DNA of 64,000 nt. Origin: Reticulascus tulasneorum. Lineage: Eukaryota; Ascomycota; Sordariomycetes; Glomerellales; Reticulascaceae. The position numbers and the translations under genes are program-made. Positions within the stretch are counted from its first letter, which is position 1. Each line of letters begins with the position of its first letter. Positions 6,415-50,345 of this stretch are shown piece by piece. The stretch covers positions 682,001 through 746,000 of the forward strand of contig LSAX01000001.1 of the NCBI GenBank assembly GCA_001557505.1. Direction: 5' to 3'. Below the pieces are notes generated by a model. That model had not been told where the DNA came from and did not search any database. It saw nothing but the letters and a program-made list of their open reading frames with translations.

Positions 6415-7437
6415 CTAATTCTGTCGTCTTGGAGGAGGTTGACATGATCTTCCCATTTTCTCCCTGATCCAGTTATCAGTCCACCAATACCGCTGTACCA
6501 TCTCTGGCTCGGTCCCCCAGAAATCCATTCGCTCCTTTCGCCCCTTCAGCTTCCGCCCGAATCTTGCCATCAGTCGAGTCTCGACCAACTTGTCTCGTAG
6601 CTTGACGAGATACCGATACCAGTCTTCCCATTTGATGTTGCTGTGGTTGTCTCTATTGCATGTTGGTACCATGCTACTTGAGAGCAGCTCAGATACTGGC
6701 GTCAATCCTTTGGCCATGGCTTGCTTATGTCGCTCGGTCTCCCACAATCTTGCTTGGACGCATGTTGATCACCAGATTTCTCAGCTCTTCCATTCCTGGG
6801 ACGAGCTGCCTATCAACAACCCCAGTCGCATACCAACCGATACAGAAAGAGCTGTTTTGCGAAAACTCGACACCCTCATCACTCAGTTTGACAGTCTCAT
6901 TGGCCATGGCGATGATGGATTTTACGAGTGGACTGCCATCCTAGGCACTAAGCCTGCTCAAGTCAGTACTGCTTCAAAAGATGGGATGCTGAGATAGGCG
7001 TACTCGGATTCTCATCTCAGATATTTCCGGAGTATGGGCGGCGCTATTAATGGGATGCTTCATTTGGTGAGTGAACGACGCGAGGCCAGCAAGTTCAGTG
7101 TTGCTCATAAGCAGTTTTGAAGCCGAGAGAATACTGGGTAGGTAAAAAGCAGCAAATTCTACCCTTCGGAAATCCAGAAGGTCGGATGGTAATTCCTTGC
7201 TAACAGGGCCTTGGGCAATCATGGTCTGGAGCCCGGGGAAAGAGCCTATGGCGTGAAGTAACAAAAGCGAAAGGCAGAATCTAAGCGGGGCCATGCCATC
7301 AAGCCGGACAGCAAGACCTACCTATCCCGGTAAGAACGAGGAGTAAAGTCAACTCGCTGGGTACTCAGACACGTCTAACAATGTACTTCACTGGCTGCAC
7401 TGGACGCGTGGAAGAGAGCCTGCGATTTAAGCACCAT
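6415..7437 (-). pseudogene. Unrecognised protein gene with an apparent frameshift
   Basis: A convincing three-exon model exists: exon 1 7437-7387 (17 codons), exon 2 7321-7004 (106 codons), exon 3 6940-6415. The introns are 65 and 63 bases with GTAC donors and TAG acceptors, and the frame holds across both joins. Exon 2 has a Leu-rich helix (LLLLHAIGSFPGLQTM). In exon 3 the frame runs well to ...LVINMRPSK and then hits a stop at 6725. The clearly protein-like continuation (WETERHKQAMAKG, then IKWEDWYRYLVKLRDKLVE and a Trp/Arg-rich end) lies one frame over and is open to 6415. I found no intron that repairs it. The shift maps to about 6745-6752. It is either a recent pseudogene or a one-base assembly error. 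The family was not recognised. If real, the shortened product would be about 195 residues. Confidence 0.55.
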
Positions 7438-7782
7438 CCCTCAGAGCAAGTTGCCATAATGTCCCCTTCTCTAGAGATTTCCACTTCGGTCCAACATGTG
7501 GTGAGTTGAATGGATATGTTTCTGGACATGGTAAGACGCTCTAAACGCAACATATCACATGTCACGCATGTTGCTGACTTGTTGACTAAAGTTATGTTTA
7601 TTCAGGCGAGTACTCAACAGAGGTTGAATATGCCGTTACATAATAATACAGCATGAGGATGTTATCGATCCATGGAGCTGAAAGAAGCCTACCACACTGC
7701 GTTGCGGTGGCGGCCAACGGCAAAAGAAACATCCAACCGAAACTAAACCCATATTTGCAACTGGAACGATTTGATCGCAGTC
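7438..7782. other. Intergenic
   Basis: Short spacer between two minus-strand genes. It holds the 5' flank of the frameshifted gene and the 3' flank of the annexin gene. No further coding signal was seen. A small upstream frame (7565-7365) overlaps exon 1 of the frameshifted gene in another frame and is probably not used. Confidence 0.4.
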
Positions 7783-9376
7783 TTAATCTCCGATGCAAGC
7801 CACCAACAACTTCTCGTAATCGCCGCTCGTCTCACCCTTGATCCTACTCCCCAAGCTGCGACGAAACCTCTGCTGGTAAGCAGCCTTGATGTTGGTCATG
7901 GTGGCACGATCCCAGTGGAAGCGAACGACGCGGCCAATGAGCAGCTGATCCTTGGTACCGGCACCAGACATGGCATCCTCCAGCAGTTGGGCTGCATGCA
8001 TGTACTTGTCCACAGCATGGCGTAGCTGGAATAGTAGAGCGTCCTCCATGTGACCACTAAATTCCTGCAAGACTGTTAGTTGCCGTAGGACAGACAAGAT
8101 TTCGGGTAGCGTACCTTCTTGATCACATCCTCCAACTTCTTCCTGAACTTTTGCTCATAAGTCTGGGCAATGGCGCGAATTTGGTTATCGTTTCTGGTGC
8201 TGAGAATGTTGCAAACGAGTATCTCGTCGGTTCCAACCTTCCCTTCCGTCGCCTTGTATAACTCCATCACATCAGCGTCGATTTGCTGCGGTATCACCGG
8301 TGCCGAGTCCTCTGCTCTGTTGGCAGCCAACACGATCAGGAAGTGCCTTTCCGTTTTCATGCTTAGGTCGTCTTTGACAGCATCCTCCAGCTTTCGCCGG
8401 GTGAGCTGCTGGTAAGCGCTCTTAATGGCCCGGAGATCCGCATTTGATCGACCCAGCAGCACATCGTTCAGCACCTTTTCCTTGGTGCCTGGTCCATCCA
8501 TAGCTTCGAAGAGCTCATAGACGTCCGCGTAAAGTGGTCCGCGAACAATGGACAGCAGACCTCTCTCGAGCCAACCGCCCGTCTCTTTCTTAATGTCTTG
8601 GTCTAATTGTCGGTTGAAGCTCCTCTGGAAAGCAGATTTGATAGCCTCGACTTGTAGTGGATCTTTCGTCGCCAGGGCCCGGATCAGCGCCTTCTCGTCT
8701 GTGCCGAATCCCTTCATAGCATTCCGGCAGGCCGAAGCATCCGGGTTACCATCCCACTGAATGATCTGCGGGGGTCCGTATCCCACGGAAGGCGGCGTAG
8801 GCGCCGTCGCCGGTTGCCCATACTGTGGCTGGGGAGCTCCATACTGACCGGGAGGTGGCCCTGGGGGAGCGCCATACTGGCCGGGAGGTGGTCCTGGAGG
8901 AGCGCCGTATTGGCCAGGCGGAGCAGGTGATGGCTGACCGTATGGTGCTGGTGGCGGCGCGCCGTATTGACCTGGAGGCGGTCCTGGCGGAGCGCCATAC
9001 TGGCCAGGCGGAGCGGGCGACCCATACGGAGCCGGTGGTTGCTGCCCGTAGTATGATGCCTGCTGCGGTGGAGGATACTGGCCCGGAGGAGGCTGGCCGT
9101 AAGCCTGCTGCGGAGGGTACTGACCCTGGGGAGGGGGATATTGTCCTGGGGGAGGCTGACCGTAACCCTGTTGCGGAGGAGGGTACTGGCCCTGGGGAGG
9201 AGGATATTGACCCGGGGGAGGTTGCCCATAGGCCGGCTGCGCTGGAGGGTATTGTTGGCCGTAGCCCTGCTGGGGCTGCTCTGTTCAAACTGTTAGATGC
9301 ATCCCGAATGAGCAAGAGGTCGCATGATGGAATGCTACGTACGAGCGCCGTAACCGTACTGGCCTTGGTGAGACAT
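7783..9376 (-). CDS. Annexin with Pro/Gln/Gly/Tyr-rich N-terminal domain
   Basis: Annexins bind acidic phospholipids in a calcium-dependent way at membranes. Three exons (9376-9343, 9280-8115, 8064-7783) give 493 residues. The first coding exon is only 34 bases (MSHQGQYGYG start, codon split at a GTACGT donor). Residues about 10-180 are a low-complexity domain built from units like QYGAPPGPPPG and QYPPPQ. The annexin core starts near residue 190 and has four repeats, recognisable by the loops GFGTDEKALIRAL, GPGTKEKVLNDVL, KVGTDEILVCNIL and GAGTKDQLLIGRV. The first and third keep the GT-D type calcium-loop pattern. The second and fourth have Lys after GT, which may weaken calcium binding. The layout matches the long-tailed fungal annexins (AnxC3-like) and resembles animal annexin A7/A11. 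The translation ends in ACIGD. Confidence 0.93.
8800..9270 (-). repeat. Imperfect coding repeat, annexin tail
   Basis: Degenerate tandem units of roughly 24-45 bases encode Pro/Gly/Gln/Tyr blocks (for example GQYGAPP and GYGQPPP). The GC-rich strand bias opens long false frames in all other phases of this stretch. They should not be annotated as genes. Confidence 0.75.
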
Positions 9377-24167: not shown

Positions 24168-26648
24168 TCAAGCAATGGCAAGCGTGACCATTGGGCTTGT
24201 AAGTTTATCTACCATTTCTCCATTCATGAAACCATGTAGGTATGCCTCGCCCACGAGACTCCAGCCTGGAAATTTGTCCCTGCGCAGGATGAACGGCACC
24301 GTGGCCCCCTGTAGCATCCACACCTCATCTCCAATCTTTGTAGACTCGGGTGCAAGTCCCAGATAACCCATTTCCGTCCTGAAGAGCCGCCGGTGTCTCA
24401 TTGCATCGCATAGTGCTTTGTGATAGCGATCATGCAGTCGCCGCACACCGGCGTTTAACACAGCGCGACAATTATACGCTGATGCAATACTATTACAATA
24501 GTCAAGGTCATGATTCGGGCCTGATACTTTCACCTTGGACGAGCTGGCCATGAGTGAGGTACGCCCATACTCCAGCAGCTCTTCTGCTGAGGGAGTAGCA
24601 CCGTTGTCGGTGGCTGGTGTATCTTGCAGAGGCTGTATCAGTTCTTGATACGGCTTGCTGTTGACATGCGCCGAAACGTCATTGATGAAATCCGGGGTAA
24701 TGATATGCAGGGCCTGAAAATATTGCCAGCTTAAGAACTGTTTGAAGCAGTCTCTCACTTCTCCTTGTGCGGGTTCCCGTTGATGCGTGTCAGCAATCAA
24801 CGTGCGCCACAAGACCTCGCTAAGATTCTGCCCCATGTTCAGGTACGGCACTTGAGCCTTTCGTGCAACTTGGACCAGCGGAATTATGTGATGTATATTG
24901 ACCGCGTCCTTAGTCGAGATGGAAATGTCGACAATCTGGTCAACATATATGCCCTTGACTATCAATAAAGGTCCAGCCGTGGTCACCTCCGTAGTATGCT
25001 TGTATTGAGGCCAGCAGTCGAATGAATGCCCAGCTGAACGCATGGTAATGAGTGGCTCGGGCGTCACCTCGCAGCTGTAGTCAGGAATCCACGATGGCAG
25101 TCCCTGGACGTTGCGGCTTGATCTGTCCTCGACGTAAGAAAGGGTCTTCAGTCTTGGCACTTTCATGAGCAACAGACACCCCACCCTCTTGTACAGCTCT
25201 ACTGTAGTGCATGTGTCAGAGTAGTCAGGCTCGATAGGCATGTTTGGCCCGTCGTGGATTCGCTGCATGATTCCAAGGTAGGCAAAGATCTTGTCTCGAG
25301 GATCTCGGCATCCTTGGCTGCGTGTTTTCCAAAGCAAGTGCTGAAAGAACTTAAACCAAAACATTGGTTTCCTTTCACCAGGCTTGCCTAACAAATTCAG
25401 CGGATTCGTACTCGATTGGCTGTCGCCGTAACTTGTTCGAACAAACGTAGTCGGCTCATTTGAGAATCTTTCTAGGGTGTAGTCGAGCTTTTGTCCAAGA
25501 ACGCCTCCAAGAAACGAAGCTCGGCCGTCCAGGTCGGCATATTGATCCAAGGCGTCACTCCAACCCCACATGCTGTCCAACTCTGAGCCGAAACGAGGTC
25601 CGGCAATCGTCGCTCCCATTCGGACATGACATATTCGAATCAGTTCCTTAGCACCCTGTCCCCAGAGCGATGGGTTGTTTGGTGCGGCGGCATAATCCCA
25701 CCCCAGGATGTCTATCAAGTAGCTGAAAGCGAGTATATCTGACCATGCAAGGTCCGCTGTCCCACACTTGACCACAATCAACTTGGCCAGAGCTACCTCT
25801 TGGACCACCCAGGCTCGTGAAAACCAGCGGCGGCGCCGAAAAAAACTGAAGTATTCGGTCCAGCACTCGCTCCATGTCGAGCCGTTAGGAGGCACTACTT
25901 TAAGTTCGAACAGCAACTCAAGATCATATGGATGCTGCTGCTGGAGTTTTCTGATGCCATGCTTCTCTACATACTCCATCAGTGCTTCACGAACAGTAGA
26001 GTTCATCCACATGAAGTTCTCCATCCCAGATATGTCGGGCCCCATCCACACGCATACCATCAGTGCTTTCGAATATATCTCGCCCATGAGCCGCACTTGG
26101 GAAGCTTTTTCCTGCGTATTGGACTGGTTGATACATAGTGAATCAATCCATATAGAATGTATTGGGATATTCTGGTAAGCAAATGCTTTAATTGCCATCA
26201 ACGCGTTTTTCGGTATCTCAAACATTGCACCGCCGACACTGTATAGAACTGCCGAAGGAGTTTCCAGGGCCGTCTCGGCTTCTTCCTCAGCCTTCATGGG
26301 GTCCCCCCAACAGTATGACAGTGCTATGAACGGCGGATTGTCGTCTAAGTTGACGGTGTATTGAATGGGGGATATGATAATGTCGTCCCAGGAATCAAGC
26401 TTCTCTCCAGGTTTTACGATCTCGTACTCGTCGACCGTTAAGTTCCGAAGCCAAACATCATCTTCCGAACGCTGCTTCCCAGAACACTGCTTCTCTAAAC
26501 GCTGCTTCTCCGAAATCCACTTTTCTGACCTGAGCCTCAGCAAATCAAACCTGAGCAGCCGTATTGATCGCTCGTTTGGTAATGGTATGTGAGCACTGTC
26601 TGCTGGAGAGGTGGAGGCACTAGCATCTGCAGCAGTCGAATGCTCCAT
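24168..26648 (-). CDS. HET-domain protein (heterokaryon incompatibility)
   Basis: Single exon, 826 residues from ATG 26648 (GCCATGG context; six more codons open from a TTG upstream). HET proteins trigger cell death when genetically different fungal strains fuse. The HET domain spans about residues 100-270 and shows its three hallmarks: PFIALSYCWGD, IHSIWIDSLCINQ, and QVRLMGEIYSKALMVCVWMG. RRRWFSRAWVVQEVALA and CRDPRDKIFAYLGIM follow, both usual in this family. The C-terminal third ends with GDEVWMLQGATVPFILRR and a LVGEAYLHGFMNGEM-type motif common to HET proteins. Just before the domain is a five-residue tandem repeat (SEKWI, SEKQR, LEKQC, SGKQR). No NACHT or WD40 part is present. It is divergent from a second HET gene. 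Confidence 0.93.
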   Translation of the reverse strand: MEHSTAADASASTSPADSAHIPLPNERSIRLLRFDLLRLRSEKWISEKQRLEKQCSGKQRSEDDVWLRNLTVDEYEIVKPGEKLDSWDDIIISPIQYTVNLDDNPPFIALSYCWGDPMKAEEEAETALETPSAVLYSVGGAMFEIPKNALMAIKAFAYQNIPIHSIWIDSLCINQSNTQEKASQVRLMGEIYSKALMVCVWMGPDISGMENFMWMNSTVREALMEYVEKHGIRKLQQQHPYDLELLFELKVVPPNGSTWSECWTEYFSFFRRRRWFSRAWVVQEVALAKLIVVKCGTADLAWSDILAFSYLIDILGWDYAAAPNNPSLWGQGAKELIRICHVRMGATIAGPRFGSELDSMWGWSDALDQYADLDGRASFLGGVLGQKLDYTLERFSNEPTTFVRTSYGDSQSSTNPLNLLGKPGERKPMFWFKFFQHLLWKTRSQGCRDPRDKIFAYLGIMQRIHDGPNMPIEPDYSDTCTTVELYKRVGCLLLMKVPRLKTLSYVEDRSSRNVQGLPSWIPDYSCEVTPEPLITMRSAGHSFDCWPQYKHTTEVTTAGPLLIVKGIYVDQIVDISISTKDAVNIHHIIPLVQVARKAQVPYLNMGQNLSEVLWRTLIADTHQREPAQGEVRDCFKQFLSWQYFQALHIITPDFINDVSAHVNSKPYQELIQPLQDTPATDNGATPSAEELLEYGRTSLMASSSKVKVSGPNHDLDYCNSIASAYNCRAVLNAGVRRLHDRYHKALCDAMRHRRLFRTEMGYLGLAPESTKIGDEVWMLQGATVPFILRRDKFPGWSLVGEAYLHGFMNGEMVDKLTSPMVTLAIA
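26468..26527 (-). repeat. 15-base in-frame minisatellite in HET gene
   Basis: Four head-to-tail 15-base units, aacgctgcttcccag and variants, run from 26468, the last one more divergent. They encode five-residue steps upstream of the HET domain. Unit length is a multiple of three, so copy-number change keeps the frame. Confidence 0.8.
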
Positions 26649-27615
26649 GGCTTCCTGGCATAACAAAAGTGATCACGATAAAGCGCAACAGATCTAAAGC
26701 AGAATAACGAAAATTGGAGGAGACTCGAACGAATCAGATTTTCGACGACCTGGGTCCAAGATAAAAGGGTTGATCGCTTAAGGCCTCGAGATCAGCCTTG
26801 TGAGCCGCCAAGACTGCATGATGCCCGACTTTATAGGTAAAATCCGTAAATGTGACTCCCATTCCCCGAAGTTACTCCGAGATGTCTGCTGAGTTGGTTT
26901 TGACTAGAAAAGAATTCGAAGAGGGCTGGGCTTTGATGATTAATTGGTCATTGTGCCGAGTTATCTTTTACGTAGAATCACACGAACTGATAATATCTGT
27001 CAGACTGCGATCATTCTGTGCCTTGTCGAGAACACCGGCGGTCGAGAGGAAACCAAGCCTTTGCGGGGGTGTTCGTGGCTTTGGCAATGATTTAGTAGCC
27101 ACGTGCTAGGTGCTACACACCTTGCCGCCTAATAAATGTGTGGCCTTCAAGTTTTCATTTATACGTGCATGGGTTCAAACAATGTTTCAATCATTCTCAA
27201 GACTTTTCTTCGTGAAATTTAACTGTTGTAAAGTTAGATGTGCCAAATTCTATCTAGTTCAAATATAAGGTAGTGCAATAAGTTAATCTGTAGTCTGTAA
27301 TGGGTTGAAATTTGTGCAGTTCTGGAGGCGGCGTGAAGAAAGCCCGGCTTATTACGCAGATAACCTCCAGCCAAGCCCGCCCAGCAGAACGCCACAGGAC
27401 GAATCCCTCGGCGGCTGGGAGAAACCCCCCTAATGCTAATATCCCTAAGCCAGTAAGGGGTTCACTAACTTCACAGCGCCGGCCTAGTAAATCGTGAAAC
27501 AGTGTTCAAAATACCATGCTTTCATCTCTTCATGCGAAATTCCGATCACTCCTCTCTCAAGGCGGACAAATTAAGACATCTCGGCATTGAAGTCATCCCT
27601 CACTCATCAGTGACA
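26649..27615. other. Shared divergent promoter of the two HET genes
   Basis: About 970 bases between divergent HET genes, AT-rich in the part from 27120 to 27300. No coding region supported. The frame of the plus-strand HET gene stays open upstream to about 27502, but there it has only a GTG and a weaker ATG (27532). Confidence 0.5.
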
Positions 27616-29622
27616 ATGGCTCAGAACCAGAAATCTGATGGCGACTTGGATTATATAATTGGACAGCTCGTCAGCACAGCCTTGACGGCGCAAAGCTCAT
27701 GCCCCGTCCACGAGCAATGCGACAGTAGTTGTCCGCATCGAATTGGCGTCACTCGCTACCATGTGTCGCCCTCCGGCGTTCGCTCTAACGTTACTGATCT
27801 AAGAGCCCAGCAAGCAACGACCAGTCCTCCGGTGCAAATTCAAACCAGTGAGGTCAGGAGCATCGACCCCAACACACCTTCGTTCACATATAACCCATTG
27901 GAACCGGGGAAAAGAATGATTCGTTTGCTTAGGATCAGACGAGCGGTCTTCCGTAATAGTCCTGTTGACTGCGAGCTGGTACACTGCCATCTCGACGACG
28001 CGCCTCCCTATGGTGCTTTGTCCTACTGCTGGGGCACTGACCCGGTCGACCGCAAGATATTGTGCAATGGTCGTGTGTTCTCTGCGCGCCCGACTCTTGA
28101 AGGCGCTATGAAACGGCTACGGGCGGGCTTTGCTCCAGGGCAGAGGGAGGACTTCTTGTGGGCCGATGCCATCTGCATCAACCAGCAAGATCTCTTGGAG
28201 AAGAGCGAGCAGATCGTGCTAATGGATCGGATTTACTCCAATGCGCAGACGGTCTACATAGATCTAGGCGCTGCAGAACAGGAGACTTTCACAGTCGGCG
28301 GCGTAAAGGCGACCTGGTCAAGCAACTCCGGCATGGGATCCCCTGATGCTCTGATTCCATCTGCCGAGCTCCCGACGCCGTTTACTTACAAGACAGGGTT
28401 CTTTAGTTTGACGAAGCCCTGGTTCAGGCGTACCTGGATCATACAGGAAATTTCTCTGGCCCGGAAGGCAAAGTTCATGTTTGAGGGTAGGATCTTTGAG
28501 AAGCACGAGCTCGATGGCATCCTCGACAAGAACGAATTGCGCAAAGACCCAGAGCGCATGAAAGAACTCATGGCGAGCCCATTGACTGCACACGGGTTTA
28601 TGAACTATGTGAAGATCAAGGAGATTAGGGACTCGTTCATTGCGGGCAATAAAGACTCTCTTAAATTCATCCAGTTGACGAGGGATTTCTTGGCCACGGA
28701 GCCAAAAGATAAGATCTTTGGCCTGATGGCTTTGATGACGGAGGCAGATCGTGCCGCAATCGGTGCTTACTCTCAATCTGTACAAACAGTCTATCGTCGG
28801 TTTGCTGCCCTGCATGTCCGCCTTGGCAAAGCGATTGTTATGCTGGATAGTGCTGGAACCCAGAGACGGCAGCTGACTGGCGAGTATCTACCGTCATGGG
28901 TCCCAGACTGGACTGCGCAAGATGCTAGTCTCTGGCCAAAAGTCATCTCCAGTATGCGATACATACCATATTCGGCATCTAGTACCCTTCAACCTCGAAT
29001 AGGTCTCGTGGGAGATGAGTATGGAGTTGGCGGCATGATGGTTCGAGGAGTTCTTTTCGACAAACTGTTGTCAGTCCATGAAATTGCCAAGGACAAACGC
29101 GGCGACGATATTCAGGACTTCCTCGCCAGGCACTCTCGAATCAGGGCGGCATTTGAGAGCTCGCTCGGAATGTGCAGGACAGTCTACACCGACCCAGACG
29201 ACGCTTTTGCACGTCTGCTACTCATGGATGACACTTACACTAGTGGTAATGCCATTCCGTGGAGTACTCCAATCACAGATCCTGCTGCGGTCTACAAGAG
29301 CGCCATCCTGAGTTGGCAGCAAGGCCAGAAAGGCAAGATAGCTGGGAAGATGGACCCCGTAGACACCTTCAAAATGCAAGCTTTCGTCGCATGTGGTGGA
29401 AGGCGGTTTGCTATCACTCAAAAGGGATATATTGCGCTGGTCCCGCCTAACGCACAGGCAGGTGATTCAACTGCAGTGCTGTTTGGAGCGACAGTCCCAT
29501 ATCTCTTGAGGGAAGTACAAGGCGGATATATCCTCATTGGAGACTCATTCGTACATGGAGCAATGTATGGGGAGATGATACAGAAGCCGGGCTTGCTGCC
29601 TGTGGATGCGGTGCTGCTGTAG
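27616..29622 (+). CDS. HET-domain protein (heterokaryon incompatibility)
   Basis: Single exon, 668 residues from ATG 27616 (GACAATGG context). ATG 27532 in the same frame would add 28 residues. A Cys/His cluster near the start (SCPVHEQCDSSCPH) is unusual and may bind metal. The HET domain at about residues 90-260 shows PPYGALSYCWGTD, DFLWADAICINQQD and QIVLMDRIYSNAQTVYIDLG. WFRRTWIIQEISLA and ATEPKDKIFGLMALM follow, as in the neighbouring HET gene, but the two proteins differ strongly elsewhere, so this is not a recent duplication. The C-terminus has AVLFGATVPYLLR and YILIGDSFVHGAMYGEM. Its likely role is self/non-self recognition leading to cell death. Confidence 0.92.
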   Translation: MAQNQKSDGDLDYIIGQLVSTALTAQSSCPVHEQCDSSCPHRIGVTRYHVSPSGVRSNVTDLRAQQATTSPPVQIQTSEVRSIDPNTPSFTYNPLEPGKRMIRLLRIRRAVFRNSPVDCELVHCHLDDAPPYGALSYCWGTDPVDRKILCNGRVFSARPTLEGAMKRLRAGFAPGQREDFLWADAICINQQDLLEKSEQIVLMDRIYSNAQTVYIDLGAAEQETFTVGGVKATWSSNSGMGSPDALIPSAELPTPFTYKTGFFSLTKPWFRRTWIIQEISLARKAKFMFEGRIFEKHELDGILDKNELRKDPERMKELMASPLTAHGFMNYVKIKEIRDSFIAGNKDSLKFIQLTRDFLATEPKDKIFGLMALMTEADRAAIGAYSQSVQTVYRRFAALHVRLGKAIVMLDSAGTQRRQLTGEYLPSWVPDWTAQDASLWPKVISSMRYIPYSASSTLQPRIGLVGDEYGVGGMMVRGVLFDKLLSVHEIAKDKRGDDIQDFLARHSRIRAAFESSLGMCRTVYTDPDDAFARLLLMDDTYTSGNAIPWSTPITDPAAVYKSAILSWQQGQKGKIAGKMDPVDTFKMQAFVACGGRRFAITQKGYIALVPPNAQAGDSTAVLFGATVPYLLREVQGGYILIGDSFVHGAMYGEMIQKPGLLPVDAVLL

Positions 29623-45191: not shown

Positions 45192-46501
45192 GAACAGTGC
45201 TGCTTGAATTCAGGTGATTGACACCACACAATTAAGACAATGTGGGAAACGAGATAGCTGCAAGACGAAGTTGATCTTTATAGTTGCTTGCCAGACGTTC
45301 TTGGCAGGATTATGACCTGTGGGGCTCTGCTACAAAGTCTCCGGTGTGAAGGATTCAGATCCCGAGCTACTCTCTCGAAATGTCTCCGAGGCGTAATCCT
45401 GCGGAAGCACATTCATTCGCCAATCAAATGCAAATCAGCATAGCCGATTAAAGCGGAAATATCTTCAGACGTTACGCCAGGCGGTATCTAGATTATGTAG
45501 TATTTACTGGAGCTATTACGATCCTCTGTAAGACATCAAGGTATTGGCCTTACTCAAATGAGCTGCACTGACTTGTGATAGTTTACTTGCGGGGTTTGTG
45601 ATCGATTAGCAAAGCCAATATCAAATTGATAAAATTATACAGCATTTGAGCGGCTTTTAAATCTAGTGATTGAGCTTAAATTTCAGATTAGGTCGATAAA
45701 TTGTTCGTGGATCTCATTCGTGAGAACCATTCATTTACATTGTCGTTGTCATCGATGAGAATACTTGTTAACACAGATTGAGGTCCGTTTCGTTTTTGAT
45801 AAGGAATCCGAACTCAAACAGAGGCTTGTCAGTGAAAGCAGGGTAGGCGGCCTTGCTCAGCCACGGTTTTGGGTGAGGCAGCAAGTGCTCGGGTCTTGAG
45901 ATGAGAAAGCTAATTACTTATAAAAAGATTGAGAGAATCTATATGAGAATACAACAGCTTGTCGCGTCTGCCAAAACTTTTCATGGGCAAATTGAGCGGT
46001 GTTGTCTTTGAGTTGCGAAAGCTCTCTGCCTGAGGATGTCGCCAAGCAGCAAGCCACTTGCGTTATTTACGAGGTATCGTACGAGAATTGGGCCTCTGCA
46101 TTGGCTAACGATAGCTTTAAGCCACAATATTATCCTTATAATGCGGTCCGGGACACATATTTCCACATCCTCGTTCCACTCGCCCTACTCAATATAACTT
46201 CATCATCCAGTACGTGAGACATATCAAGAAACCTATCAGACAACCAAGATTTGTTAACCGATCTACAGCAGCCTGACAGCGAGTCCGTGTTGTTGGTATG
46301 TTAGGGCTCCCGAAGATGGTGATTCAACGACTTACTTATAACTCAGCAGCCTCAGACGAGACTTGTCTCCACAGTAAACACCAGGTTAGCCCGATAGTCC
46401 ACCACCATCGCCTCATTCGTCGCTGAGCGAGAGTGAACGCAGTTACTTACTCCGGAGAACCTGGTCAAGAGCGCTGTGATCGAAGCAGGCGAAAAAGCAT
46501 A
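45192..46501. other. AT-rich gene-free stretch left of the bacterial-type gene
   Basis: About 1.3 kb, clearly richer in A/T than the flanking genes, especially 45430-46000. It has only tiny frames. It is the divergent promoter region of the methyltransferase and of the nuclease-helicase. No transposon ends or direct repeats were recognised. Confidence 0.5.
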
Positions 46502-48274
46502 ATGAGGTCTAAACTGGCCGAGCTTGAATTCTCCAAGGCTGCTGTATTGGATTGGGAGCGCCAGGACGAGAAACATGGCAATTGGCCTGTCGTATATGTC
46601 TTAGACGACGGTCGTGACGCCTCACAGGTCAATCCGAACAACCTGCGGGATATCTACGTCGGGGAATCGCGCAACGCCAGGCGTCGACTATGTGACCACC
46701 TCAAAACACCCGAGAAACAGCACCTCAGAAAGATCCGCGTTTTTATCGATGAAAGCTTCAACAAGTCAGTATGCCTCGACTTAGAGTCGTACCTCATCAG
46801 GATGTTGGCCGGCGATGGTCACAATCGCGTGCTCAACCGAAATAACGGGATCACTGAGTCTGAATACTATCAGCGCGAGAGGTATCGCTTAGACTTTCAC
46901 AACATCTTCCAACAACTCAGGTTCGACGGTGTTTTCACACGAAGCATTCCCGAAATCGAAAACAGCGATCTCTTCAAGCTGTCGCCATTCAAAGCGCTGA
47001 CAGAAGATCAAGCAGATTCGGCAGAGGAGATCCTTACAGAGTTCTTCAATGATCTTCAGAGAGGCGCTGAAAGCATGATTGTGATCCAGGGCGATCCAGG
47101 CACTGGCAAGACGGTCTTGGCCATATATATGCTCAAATTGCTGGTTGACATTAAAACTTTTACTTCACTTGAAGATCTAGATAGCGACTCACGATTCTCT
47201 AACTTCTTTACCGAGACCAATCGGAGTCTTTTCAATGATCTCCGCGTTGGCCTAGTTGTTCCGCAGCAATCGCTGCGAGTCTCCATCAAGAATGTCTTCA
47301 AAAACACACCAGGGCTTAACCCGACAATGGTCTTAACCCCCTTCGAAGTTGGAAAAGCAGACGGACAGTTCGATCTGCTCGTGGTTGACGAGACTCATCG
47401 GCTTAATCAACGTGCGAGCCAAGCATCGGGACCGCTCAACGTCAAGTTTGCAGACATTACGAGAGACCTCTTTGGCATCGACGATACCAGCAAGACTCAA
47501 CTTGATTGGATACGGAAGAAGAGCCGACATCGAATCTTACTATTGGACCCAGCTCAGAGTGTTCGGCCGGCTGACCTGCCCTCGGAGCTGCTGTCAGACC
47601 TCGTTGCCGACACTCGTGCGTCGGGGCGGCATTTTCAGCTTCGGACTCAAATGCGGATCCGAGCGGGGTCGGACTTCGTGTCCTACGTTCGCTGGATGCT
47701 CGATCCTAGGCCTCTGTCATATCCGAGGGTAGGATTAAACTTTGGGCAATATGATTTCCGTATATTCGACAGCGTTGCAGACATGCGGGACGAGATTTTC
47801 CAACGCGAGGCCGAGGTGGGTCTTTCACGCATGGTTGCTGGCTTCGCATGGGAGTGGAAGTCCAAAAAGGATAAAGAAGCGTTCGACATCGAAATCGGCG
47901 AGACGCGGCTTCGTTGGAACAGCACCACCACTGACTGGATTGCTTCTGACAAGTCGCTTGAGCAAGTTGGATCGATTCATACGGTTCAGGGATACGACCT
48001 GAACTACGTTGGCGTTATTATTGGTCTTGATCTACGATTCGACCCTGAGCGAAGGCGTCTCTTCATTGATCGCAAATCATACTTCGACAGAAAGGGCAAG
48101 GAGAACAACCCAACGCTCGGCAGGACCTATTCGGACGATGATCTGCTACGATTCATCACGCAGATCTATGCCGTTCTCATGACCCGCGGGATCATGGGAG
48201 CGTACATTTATGTCTGCGATCCGGGGCTGAGGGAGTATCTCAGGGATCGCATCGAATCGGTTCGCCTAAATTAG
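46502..48274 (+). CDS. GIY-YIG nuclease fused to DUF2075/Schlafen-group-3 helicase, bacterial type
   Basis: Single intronless exon, 590 residues from ATG 46502; 23 more codons are open upstream to a GTG. Residues 28-115 form a GIY-YIG endonuclease-like domain: PVVYVL and DIYVGES are the two signature strands, R61/R62 the basic helix, E95 in LDLESYLIRML the metal ligand, and VLNRN the closing Asn. Residues 165-590 form a superfamily-1-like helicase (Pfam DUF2075, PF09848): Walker A GDPGTGKT (197-204), Walker B DLLVVDETHRL (291-301), LLLDPAQSVRP (347-357), TQMRIRAG (motif IV-like), IHTVQGYDLNYVGVIIG (492-508) and VLMTRGIMGAYIYV (motif VI region). This fusion is familiar from bacteria, notably actinobacteria, where such proteins are often in mobile or defence loci. 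It is unexpected in a fungus and points to horizontal transfer. All motifs look intact. The role is inferred as DNA/RNA processing or defence. Confidence 0.9.
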   Translation: MRSKLAELEFSKAAVLDWERQDEKHGNWPVVYVLDDGRDASQVNPNNLRDIYVGESRNARRRLCDHLKTPEKQHLRKIRVFIDESFNKSVCLDLESYLIRMLAGDGHNRVLNRNNGITESEYYQRERYRLDFHNIFQQLRFDGVFTRSIPEIENSDLFKLSPFKALTEDQADSAEEILTEFFNDLQRGAESMIVIQGDPGTGKTVLAIYMLKLLVDIKTFTSLEDLDSDSRFSNFFTETNRSLFNDLRVGLVVPQQSLRVSIKNVFKNTPGLNPTMVLTPFEVGKADGQFDLLVVDETHRLNQRASQASGPLNVKFADITRDLFGIDDTSKTQLDWIRKKSRHRILLLDPAQSVRPADLPSELLSDLVADTRASGRHFQLRTQMRIRAGSDFVSYVRWMLDPRPLSYPRVGLNFGQYDFRIFDSVADMRDEIFQREAEVGLSRMVAGFAWEWKSKKDKEAFDIEIGETRLRWNSTTTDWIASDKSLEQVGSIHTVQGYDLNYVGVIIGLDLRFDPERRRLFIDRKSYFDRKGKENNPTLGRTYSDDDLLRFITQIYAVLMTRGIMGAYIYVCDPGLREYLRDRIESVRLN

Positions 48275-48954: not shown

Positions 48955-50345
48955 ATGCGCTTCCAGACTTCCGCACTATGGCTCGCTGCATCCGCGTCCC
49001 TGGCGGCAGCATCTCCCGCCAGCCATAAGGCGAAGGCAGGTCTGGGCCTACGCCTCATCAAGACATCGGAGTCTGATCCTGGCGTGTGGGTAACGGAAGA
49101 AGAGAAGATCGTGCAGTTTGTTGCCAAGAAGATTGGATTCTATGATATCACCGATATCACTGTAAGTTACCTGCCATTATTTGGACAATTGACACGGTAT
49201 AAATTTCTACCGCCGGAAACTTCGAAGTGATGAGACATCAACCAGAGAGTGAGCTGACCTCGATCAAGGATGAAGAAGTTCTCGCAGTCATCTCAACTTC
49301 ACCCTCGAACTCGTCGCTTGAGGCAAGACAGGCCGTCACGTATCCCACGACATTGACACATCAGACGGAAGCTAATACCTTGATATCGAGGGTCACTACT
49401 ACCGGCCCTCAGAGTTGGCTCAAGACATTGACCGAGTAAGATCGCTCTGGCGCCACACACGAACATCTTTTCTGACTCTCTGCAGCTATTTCAATCGGTA
49501 TTACCGGTCTACGTACGGTACACAAGCTGGCACTTGGCTGTACAATCAGGTCCAAACCATAGCCTCTGCGAACTCAGCTATTACTGTCACGCAGTTCACG
49601 CACTCCTTCAACCAACCGTCCATTATTGCCAAGATACCTGGAACCAGCAGCAACCTGGTTATAGTAGGCGCGCACTATGACTCAACTGGCGGGTCGTCGA
49701 CGGCTCGCGGACCTGGCGCAGATGACAACGGCTCCGGGGTGGTCGTCATTCTGGAAGCGCTGCGAGTTCTGGCAAGTGCGGGATTCAAGCCCAAGAACAC
49801 TCTAGAGTTCCACTTTTACGCTGGTGAGGAGGGCGGTCTGCTGGGGTCCCAGGCAATCTTTTCCAACTACAAGTCAACGAGCAAGCGCGTGCTCGCCTTT
49901 GTGAATCAGGATATGGCCGGCTACTCACCAAGTGGCAAGGTCTCTGTGTACACCGACTACGTTGACTCCGCATTGACCACGTACGTTCGATTGGTTGCCA
50001 CGCAATACACTGGCTCGGCGCCTACTACTGATACATGCGGGTATGCCTGCTCAGACCACGGAAGTGCTAGGTCAAACGGTTTCCGTAAGTGGTCATTCGG
50101 CAACTTTTTGGTTCGTGACTAATCGCTGTATGTTATTTAGCTGCGGCATATGTCTGCGATGAACCCATGAGAACTTCGACTCCTTATATCCACAGCTCAC
50201 AAGATGTGAGTGGAGGTCCCTCCTCGTTTTATGTCTATGCATAGTTTGCTAATATTTATAGACATATGCTACAATCATGTGGCCCGCAGTCCTCCGCCAC
50301 GCAAAATTCACTGTTGGATTTCTTGTTGAGGCTTCATATTTGTAG
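48955..50345 (+). CDS. Secreted leucine aminopeptidase, peptidase family M28
   Basis: Five exons (48955-49161, 49269-49435, 49486-50084, 50141-50205, 50262-50345) give 373 residues. The enzyme cleaves N-terminal hydrophobic residues from peptides outside the cell. A signal peptide (MRFQTSALWLAASASLAAA) is followed by a propeptide of about 60 residues. The two-zinc site is complete: GAHYDS (His), GADDNGSG (bridging Asp), AGEEGGLLGS (Glu catalytic base and Glu ligand), NQDMAGY (Asp) and CSDHGS (His). The paired Cys in TCGYACSDH form the usual loop. Length and layout match fungal secreted Lap1-type enzymes. The second exon's acceptor (ATCAAG) is weak but is the only one that keeps the frame. Confidence 0.93.

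What the first reader, a model, noticed from the sequence alone, without database searches (positions are those of the whole stretch)
46502..48274. Bacterial-type GIY-YIG nuclease-DUF2075 helicase in a fungal chromosome
One intronless frame joins a GIY-YIG endonuclease-like domain to a Schlafen-group-3 type helicase, with every key motif intact (GDPGTGKT, DLLVVDE, IHTVQGYDL). This fusion is familiar from bacteria, especially actinobacteria, where relatives sit in mobile and phage-defence loci. Most other genes in the window with comparable length have introns. The simplest explanation is horizontal gain followed by selection to keep it intact. In a fungus it could act on mycoviruses, transposons or stalled nucleic acids, none of which is shown here.
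Basis: partly seen in the sequence, partly recalled or inferred. Interest (0 to 1): 0.88.

Follow-up and report, generated by a model that had tools for sequence, protein, structure and literature searches.

The report
Bacterial nuclease-helicase operon captured by fungi
This fungal gene for a probable nucleic-acid-cutting helicase traces back to actinobacteria, came together with a neighbour gene, is found intact in many distantly related fungi, and in this fungus the neighbour has decayed to a fossil that still hints at the original bacterial layout.

Summary
The frame is real: 46502-48274 (+), 590 codons, no intron, key motifs intact, single copy in a 42.8 Mb fungal assembly. (1) It is not a rare, recent gain. 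In three trees (92, 45 and 43 rows) the window protein falls in one strongly supported clade with every named fungal row except Xylographa; rooted on other bacteria, that clade lies inside actinobacterial rows. No sampled bacterial locus exceeds 69% identity to the five clade members compared. One ancient capture, then patchy retention and probably some fungus-to-fungus movement, fits best. (2) What moved was a two-gene operon: a MazG-like pyrophosphohydrolase gene lies upstream in the 30 best-matching loci of the Leifsonia family, its stop overlapping the helicase start by 14 nt in 25 of 30. Eight fungal gene models still have MazG, or its first third, joined to the nuclease-helicase. (3) Here MazG is a fossil (46407-46493 plus a short tail) ending on the helicase start with an 11-nt overlap. 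Function (surveillance or destruction of foreign or stalled nucleic acid) is inferred; expression and activity are untested. No paper found in the open-licence library searched describes the combination.

The parts
46502..48274 (+). intronless gene for a 590-aa GIY-YIG nuclease / Schlafen-group-3 (SF1) helicase
46589..46849 (+). GIY-YIG nuclease core (residues 30-116) with Y32, Y52, R62, E95, N112 invariant
47072..48220 (+). SLFN-g3 / DUF2075 SF1 helicase domain (residues 191-573)
47090..47113 (+). Walker A GDPGTGKT
47372..47401 (+). Walker B DLLVVDETHR
47972..48025 (+). C-terminal helicase motif SIHTVQGYDLNYVGVIIG
46407..46493 (+). MazG remnant: 29 codons matching residues 10-38 of fungal MazG, one internal stop (46434-46436), the rest of the domain missing
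   Evidence: tblastn 62-69% identity; 41.6 bits against at most 27.7 for 100 shuffled MazG sequences; no other match in the genome at E 0.001
46495..46512 (+). six codons 'KHNEV*' resembling the MazG C-terminus (KYDxL*/KHDxL*), overlapping the helicase ATG by 11 nt; suggestive only, significance not tested
   Evidence: compared
49376..50119 (+). flanking M28 peptidase frame (context, not part of the system)

Best explanation
The gene is half of a bacterial two-gene operon, MazG followed by a GIY-YIG-SF1 helicase, that passed from a Micrococcales-like actinobacterium into the ancestor of one fungal gene clade and was then retained, lost and probably at times passed between fungi. The protein most likely works as a motor-coupled nuclease: the SF1 helicase (UvrD/Schlafen-like) loads on single-stranded or branched nucleic acid and moves by ATP hydrolysis, and the N-terminal GIY-YIG domain nicks or cuts the strand. 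In bacteria the MazG partner would hydrolyse nucleotides alongside it. In this fungus MazG has been lost and the intact nuclease-helicase would act alone. Its most likely role is surveillance or destruction of foreign or stalled nucleic acid. Shown: anatomy, intactness, operon layout in bacteria, MazG decay here, phylogenetic nesting. Inferred: biochemical activity, expression, biological role (about 0.4 for defence, about 0.3 for repair or replication stress).
For: Nesting: rooted on five Bacteroidetes/Bacillota rows, the fungal clade (16 rows, 100/100) lies inside actinobacterial rows, in a 31-row group with Microbacteriaceae-type rows at 97/93; 100/100 also in the 45-row tree and SH-aLRT 100 in the 92-row tree. 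Nearest bacterial match to the window protein: 65%; at most 69% for 30 loci against five clade members. Operon: MazG adjoins or lies near in 50 of 54 loci (Leifsonia counted twice, as L003 and L049) and upstream in 30 of 30 loci of the Leifsonia family (the best 30 of 51 positive genomes), overlapping by 14 nt in 25 and 11 nt in 3. MazG parts in 8 fungal gene models; fossil in the window. Intactness: 95 of 95 invariant residues; model pLDDT 87.5, pTM 0.89. GC3 0.588 against 0.54-0.60 for eight window frames and 0.66-0.91 for five bacterial homologues. Helicase fold: UvrD and SLFN11. Defence-type neighbours in 4 of 6 loci probed, 6 of 10 frames, picked by eye.
Against: No expression, activity or phenotype evidence. 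No PADLOC model matches the protein over its length (best AbiO 5.8e-8 over 50 residues). The defence neighbours were hand-picked without a control, and one of the four loci (L020) holds only a distant helicase (29%). Presence in 51 of 199 genomes of the family (one of them a match to the first 170 residues only) fits any accessory function. GIY-YIG Pfam score is below cut-off. RSCU correlates slightly better with bacterial homologues (0.62) than with other window frames (0.56). In one search the bootstrap had not quite settled, several bacterial rows are long, and the exact bacterial sister is unresolved (86/29).
Confidence: 0.7

Rival explanations
1. Several independent transfers from a bacterial lineage not yet sampled, instead of one capture plus fungal spread.
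For: Xylographa parallela P0235 lies outside the clade, among bacterial rows. The genome-collection scan used exact peptide patterns and could miss such relatives.
Against: No bacterial match above 65% to clade member P0041 in 396 genomes of the order (42 positive) and 396 of the phylum (3 positive); at most 69% in the 30 family loci. Hypocreales, Mycenaceae, Trypetheliales and Cenococcum rows each form supported clades. These are samples, not all genomes.
Confidence: 0.15
2. A DNA repair / replication-stress enzyme of the UvrD/SLFN11 type, not a defence protein.
For: Best fold matches are UvrD, FBH1 and SLFN11, tied with other SF1 helicases; the nuclease fold is nearest plant Grx and UvrC domains; Salinibacterium L002 has an SbcC-like frame directly upstream (my reading of the frame, recalled, not searched).
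Against: Patchy distribution in the donor family (51 of 199) and restriction or OLD-like neighbours in hand-picked loci are less typical of core repair.
Confidence: 0.3
3. Bacterial contamination or mis-assembly.
For: Bacterial-type protein without introns; RSCU slightly closer to bacterial homologues.
Against: Position 728 kb in contig C1, single copy; fungal genes around; host-like GC3; membership in a clade of named fungi with MazG already decayed.
Confidence: 0.01

Closest known systems
Bacterial DUF2075 / SLFN-g3 helicase proteins with GIY-YIG N-terminus next to a MazG-like gene (Leifsonia, Salinibacterium, Agromyces and kin)
   Same: same domain order, up to 65% identity to the window protein, same gene order and overlapping junction
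   Different: fungal chromosome, MazG decayed, host-like GC3
Vertebrate group III Schlafens (SLFN11, SLFN14)
   Same: same Pfam helicase family name and helicase fold
   Different: no Schlafen-core nuclease found by Pfam; the nuclease is GIY-YIG; origin is bacterial transfer
Bacterial operons captured by yeasts (Kominek et al. 2019, seen only as a reference inside PMC11952965)
   Same: bacterial operon moved into fungi
   Different: the introduction of PMC11952965 (passages seen) says that in none of the examples it cites was the polycistronic structure retained; here gene order, and in the window fossil apparently the overlapping junction, persisted
AbiO / Nhi, PDC-S14, PDC-S41 (PADLOC)
   Same: weak local matches to the Walker A region, the GIY-YIG part and the C-terminus
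   Different: no full-length match; not these systems

Membership tests
SLFN-g3 helicase (PF09848, DUF2075) | full-length profile match with intact Walker A and B | tested here: met
   2.3e-63, 2-354 of 354; motifs
GIY-YIG nuclease | Pfam score above curated cut-off | tested here: not met
   18.3 against 22.6 bits
GIY-YIG nuclease | GIY-YIG fold and conserved Tyr, Tyr, Arg, Glu, Asn | tested here: met
Group III Schlafen protein | N-terminal Schlafen core nuclease | tested here: not met
   no such Pfam domain at E up to 1; GIY-YIG instead
MazG-like NTP pyrophosphohydrolase partner | complete MazG ORF upstream | tested here: not met
   only a remnant with a stop and most of the domain missing; met in bacteria (PF12643 3.2e-19)
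Known anti-phage system (PADLOC) | full-length match to a system gene | tested here: not met
Bacteria-to-fungus gene transfer | fungal clade nested among bacterial homologues with an independent bacterial outgroup | tested here: met
   (97/93 for the fungal plus Microbacteriaceae-type group, 100/100 for the fungal clade)
Starship cargo | DUF3435 captain on the same contig | tested here: not met
   7 matches on contigs C2, C12 and C17, none on C1; that DUF3435 marks captains is recalled
Anti-viral or defence function | activity or phenotype | not testable with these tools
   needs experiment

The most novel reading that the evidence does not exclude
A bacterial conflict operon (nucleotide pyrophosphohydrolase plus nuclease-helicase) was captured once and has served since as cell-autonomous nucleic-acid immunity across Ascomycota and Mycenaceae, with its compact layout kept and both products made from one transcript in the fungi that retain MazG: a eukaryote running an unrearranged bacterial operon.
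Probability: 0.15. Interest if true: 0.88.

Novelty: new variant of a known kind. Interest (0 to 1): 0.62.

Why it matters
It would add a nuclease-helicase module to the bacterial conflict genes known to be fixed in eukaryotes, with a Schlafen-type helicase as the shared engine of bacterial, fungal and vertebrate proteins. It also makes an open question testable: how fungi express a bacterial operon whose two reading frames overlapped, and what happens when one partner is lost. The fungi with MazG and the one here without it form a natural comparison.

Tried and rejected
A recent, isolated gain: rejected. Lack of introns as evidence of foreignness: weak, two HET frames are also long and open. 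Codon usage as a donor signal: GC3 is host-like, RSCU leans slightly to the bacterial homologues (0.62 against 0.56), so it does not decide. Starship transport: no captain-type match on C1. Repeats around the gene: only short imperfect ones. Relatives in viral contigs: 6 pattern matches, none confirmed. Plasmids: 40 records, all under 60%, best listed 32.2%. Phages: 4 records, one unannotated gut scaffold at 51.7%. Sequence match of the nuclease domain to solved structures: nothing significant, best E 0.57. Helicase to solved structures by sequence: best E 0.012. Foldseek on the whole model: Dna2, Upf1, RecD at E 1e-9 to 1e-8 but TM-scores of only about 0.3. Foldseek on the nuclease domain: no E below 0.001; the GIY-YIG match comes from VIA-align of Foldseek's candidates (641 chains aligned). 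NCBIfam: only sub-threshold matches. PHROGs: none for the protein at E 1e-5.

Papers (open-licence PMC library only): no paper holds Schlafen group 3 + GIY-YIG + fungi, DUF2075 + GIY-YIG, MazG + DUF2075 or GIY-YIG + Schlafen. DUF2075 + fungal gave two papers on lactobacilli (listing); MazG + GIY-YIG + helicase + defense gave one on a Vibrio phage (listing). Searches were seen as listings with abstract starts. PMC10197012, PMC11249213 and PMC3710099 were searched for terms, passages seen: GIY-YIG in none, Schlafen only in PMC3710099. PMC11952965: abstract, outline and passages.

Fungal MazG-helicase fusions as real proteins: doubtful. In the six models with complete or nearly complete MazG the helicase part starts at residue 9, 14, 9, 38, 19 or 43 of an intact relative, and P0105 and P0078 thereby lose the first catalytic Tyr region.

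Full report

Where it sits. The gene is single copy in a 42.8 Mb, 35-contig assembly, at 728 kb of contig C1, and gives the only PF09848 match there. Of 20 neighbouring frames scanned, 10 have Pfam matches, including two HET domains, fungal rhodopsin, GH10, M28 peptidase, copper amine oxidase, peroxidase and annexin: a filamentous fungus. The host species was not identified. GC3 of the gene is 0.588, within the 0.54-0.60 of eight other window frames and below the 0.66-0.91 of five bacterial homologues; RSCU leans slightly the other way (0.56 to the window frames, 0.62 to the bacterial genes). DUF3435 matches (Starship captain type, recalled) lie on C2, C12 and C17, none on C1.

Relatives. A Mycena query adds seven more Mycena species and Roridomyces. 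In the bacterial genome collection, scanned with exact peptide patterns, 23 loci were found, the best from Salinibacterium (65%), Leifsonia (60%), Agromyces and Cellulomonas (56%). With the Salinibacterium protein as query the 120 listed hits are unnamed or named as actinobacteria (Cryobacterium, Agromyces, Frigoribacterium, Arthrobacter and others), plus one Xylographa (lichen) record. In whole genomes, 51 of 199 from the Leifsonia family match at E 1e-60 or better, one of them over the first 170 residues only. With fungal-clade protein P0041 as query, 42 of 396 genomes of the order match, best 65%, and 3 of 396 of the phylum, best 60%. None of the 30 fetched family loci exceeds 69% to any of five members of the fungal clade.

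Trees. Rooted on five Bacteroidetes and Bacillota rows, 16 fungal-clade rows form one clade (100/100) inside actinobacterial rows: the group of fungal clade, 14 Microbacteriaceae-type and Arthrobacter rows and Xylographa has 97/93, while other actinobacterial rows (Agromyces L004/L006, Nesterenkonia, Citricoccus, Ferrithrix, Cellulomonas, Curtobacterium) lie outside it. The bootstrap had not quite settled, several outer rows are long, and the exact sister is unresolved (86/29). The 45-row tree gives the fungal clade 100/100 and the 92-row quick tree SH-aLRT 100 (its chosen outgroup was not one side of a branch). Within the clade, Mycenaceae (100/100), seven Hypocreales (100/100), Trypetheliales (100/100) and Cenococcum (100/99) are coherent; orders are recalled except where looked up. 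Against simple vertical descent, Monosporascus (Sordariomycetes) is sister to Westerdykella (Dothideomycetes) at 99/95 inside a group with Clohesyomyces and Alternaria at 100/99, and Sordariomycetes form one clade in 0% of 200 bootstrap trees; a mislabelled genome could also cause this. The window row groups with an unnamed sequence (92/87) or weakly with Cadophora (85/41). I conclude one ancient capture from a Micrococcales-type donor, followed by patchy retention and probably some fungus-to-fungus movement.

The operon. Six fungal models carry a complete or nearly complete MazG domain in front of the helicase and two more carry about its first 31 residues. tblastn of these MazG parts found MazG in 19 of the 23 bacterial loci: directly upstream in 15, upstream at some distance in L021, L022 and L024, downstream in L020. 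MazG from Leifsonia found it in 50 of 54 loci when a gut phage scaffold and 30 loci of the Leifsonia family were added (the Leifsonia locus itself is in twice). In those 30 (the best-matching of 51 positive genomes) all have MazG upstream: 25 overlap the helicase start by 14 nt, 3 by 11 nt, one by 32 nt at the nearest start codon found, and one lies about 1 kb away. In the ten actinobacterial loci L002-L011 MazG ends in K/R-Y/H-D-x-L with its stop inside the helicase start, a 14-nt overlap in all ten.

The fossil. Window 46407-46493 reads IASFVAERE*TQLLTPENLVKSAVIEAGE, 69% identical to residues 10-38 of Fusarium torulosum MazG; it scores 41.6 bits against at most 27.7 for 100 shuffled MazG sequences. 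It holds one stop and lacks the rest of the domain, and the six-frame genome search found no other match at E 0.001. Right after it, 46495-46512 reads KHNEV*, like the MazG C-terminus, and overlaps the helicase ATG by 11 nt, a spacing also seen in 3 of 30 bacterial loci. The tail is short and its significance was not tested. The simplest reading is that the ancestral fungal copy still had the bacterial overlapping junction, and MazG decayed in this lineage while the nuclease-helicase did not: 95 of 95 residues invariant in the other 90 rows are kept (of the 25 other named fungal rows five differ at one such site each).

How it may work. From the folds, an SF1 motor carries a GIY-YIG nuclease; MazG, where present, would cleave nucleotides. 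Of ten neighbouring frames chosen by eye in six bacterial loci, six match PADLOC: a type IV restriction enzyme and a PDC-S07 gene (L004), a methyltransferase and an OLD-like gene (L006), a DpdE/DrmD-like helicase (L009), a Tmn-like protein (L020, whose helicase is only a distant relative); four frames, among them the single ones from L018 and L024, have no match. With the patchy distribution this leans toward defence, but no PADLOC model matches the protein at full length, no control for neighbour enrichment was run, and repair or replication-stress handling remains a real rival. Expression, activity and phenotype are untested.

Against print. The library searched holds no paper joining these terms. 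PMC11952965 (abstract and passages seen) states that in none of the transferred operons it cites was the polycistronic structure retained, and shows that yeast can be induced to translate a second cistron. If the MazG-bearing fungi keep the overlapping layout, they would be an exception; their DNA was out of reach here.

Noticed in passing
P0064 (Neonectria ditissima), P0065 (Fusarium ambrosium): Both carry an unrelated N-terminal stretch of about 200 aa (66% identical to each other) in front of the GIY-YIG domain, with no Pfam match there at E 0.1: a possible fungal domain fusion or a gene-prediction join.
   Followed up: partly
P0235 (Xylographa parallela): A lichen-labelled record that falls outside the fungal clade, among bacterial rows: bacterial contamination of the lichen assembly or a second, separate transfer.
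   Followed up: partly
L027 (MT836409.1) 6661-8677: An unannotated, 'unverified' gut bacteriophage scaffold carries MazG next to the GIY-YIG-helicase (helicase 51.7% to the window protein).
   Followed up: partly
L020, L021, L022, L024: MazG also lies near SLFN-g3 helicases that match the window protein mainly in the helicase part (Clostridium, Opitutae, Gemmatimonadetes, Uhrbacteria), in L020 downstream: the MazG-DUF2075 link may be wider than the GIY-YIG fusion.
   Followed up: partly
L004 7798-11112: Next to the Agromyces copy lies a PDC-S07 gene (NUDIX-like, recalled) followed by a type IV restriction enzyme.
   Followed up: partly
window 24171-26672 (-) and 27469-29619 (+): Two HET-domain (heterokaryon incompatibility) frames in divergent orientation, about 17-22 kb upstream of the gene.
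   Followed up: no
G000 contigs C2, C12, C17: DUF3435 (Starship captain-like, recalled) matches at three places, some with in-frame stops.
   Followed up: no
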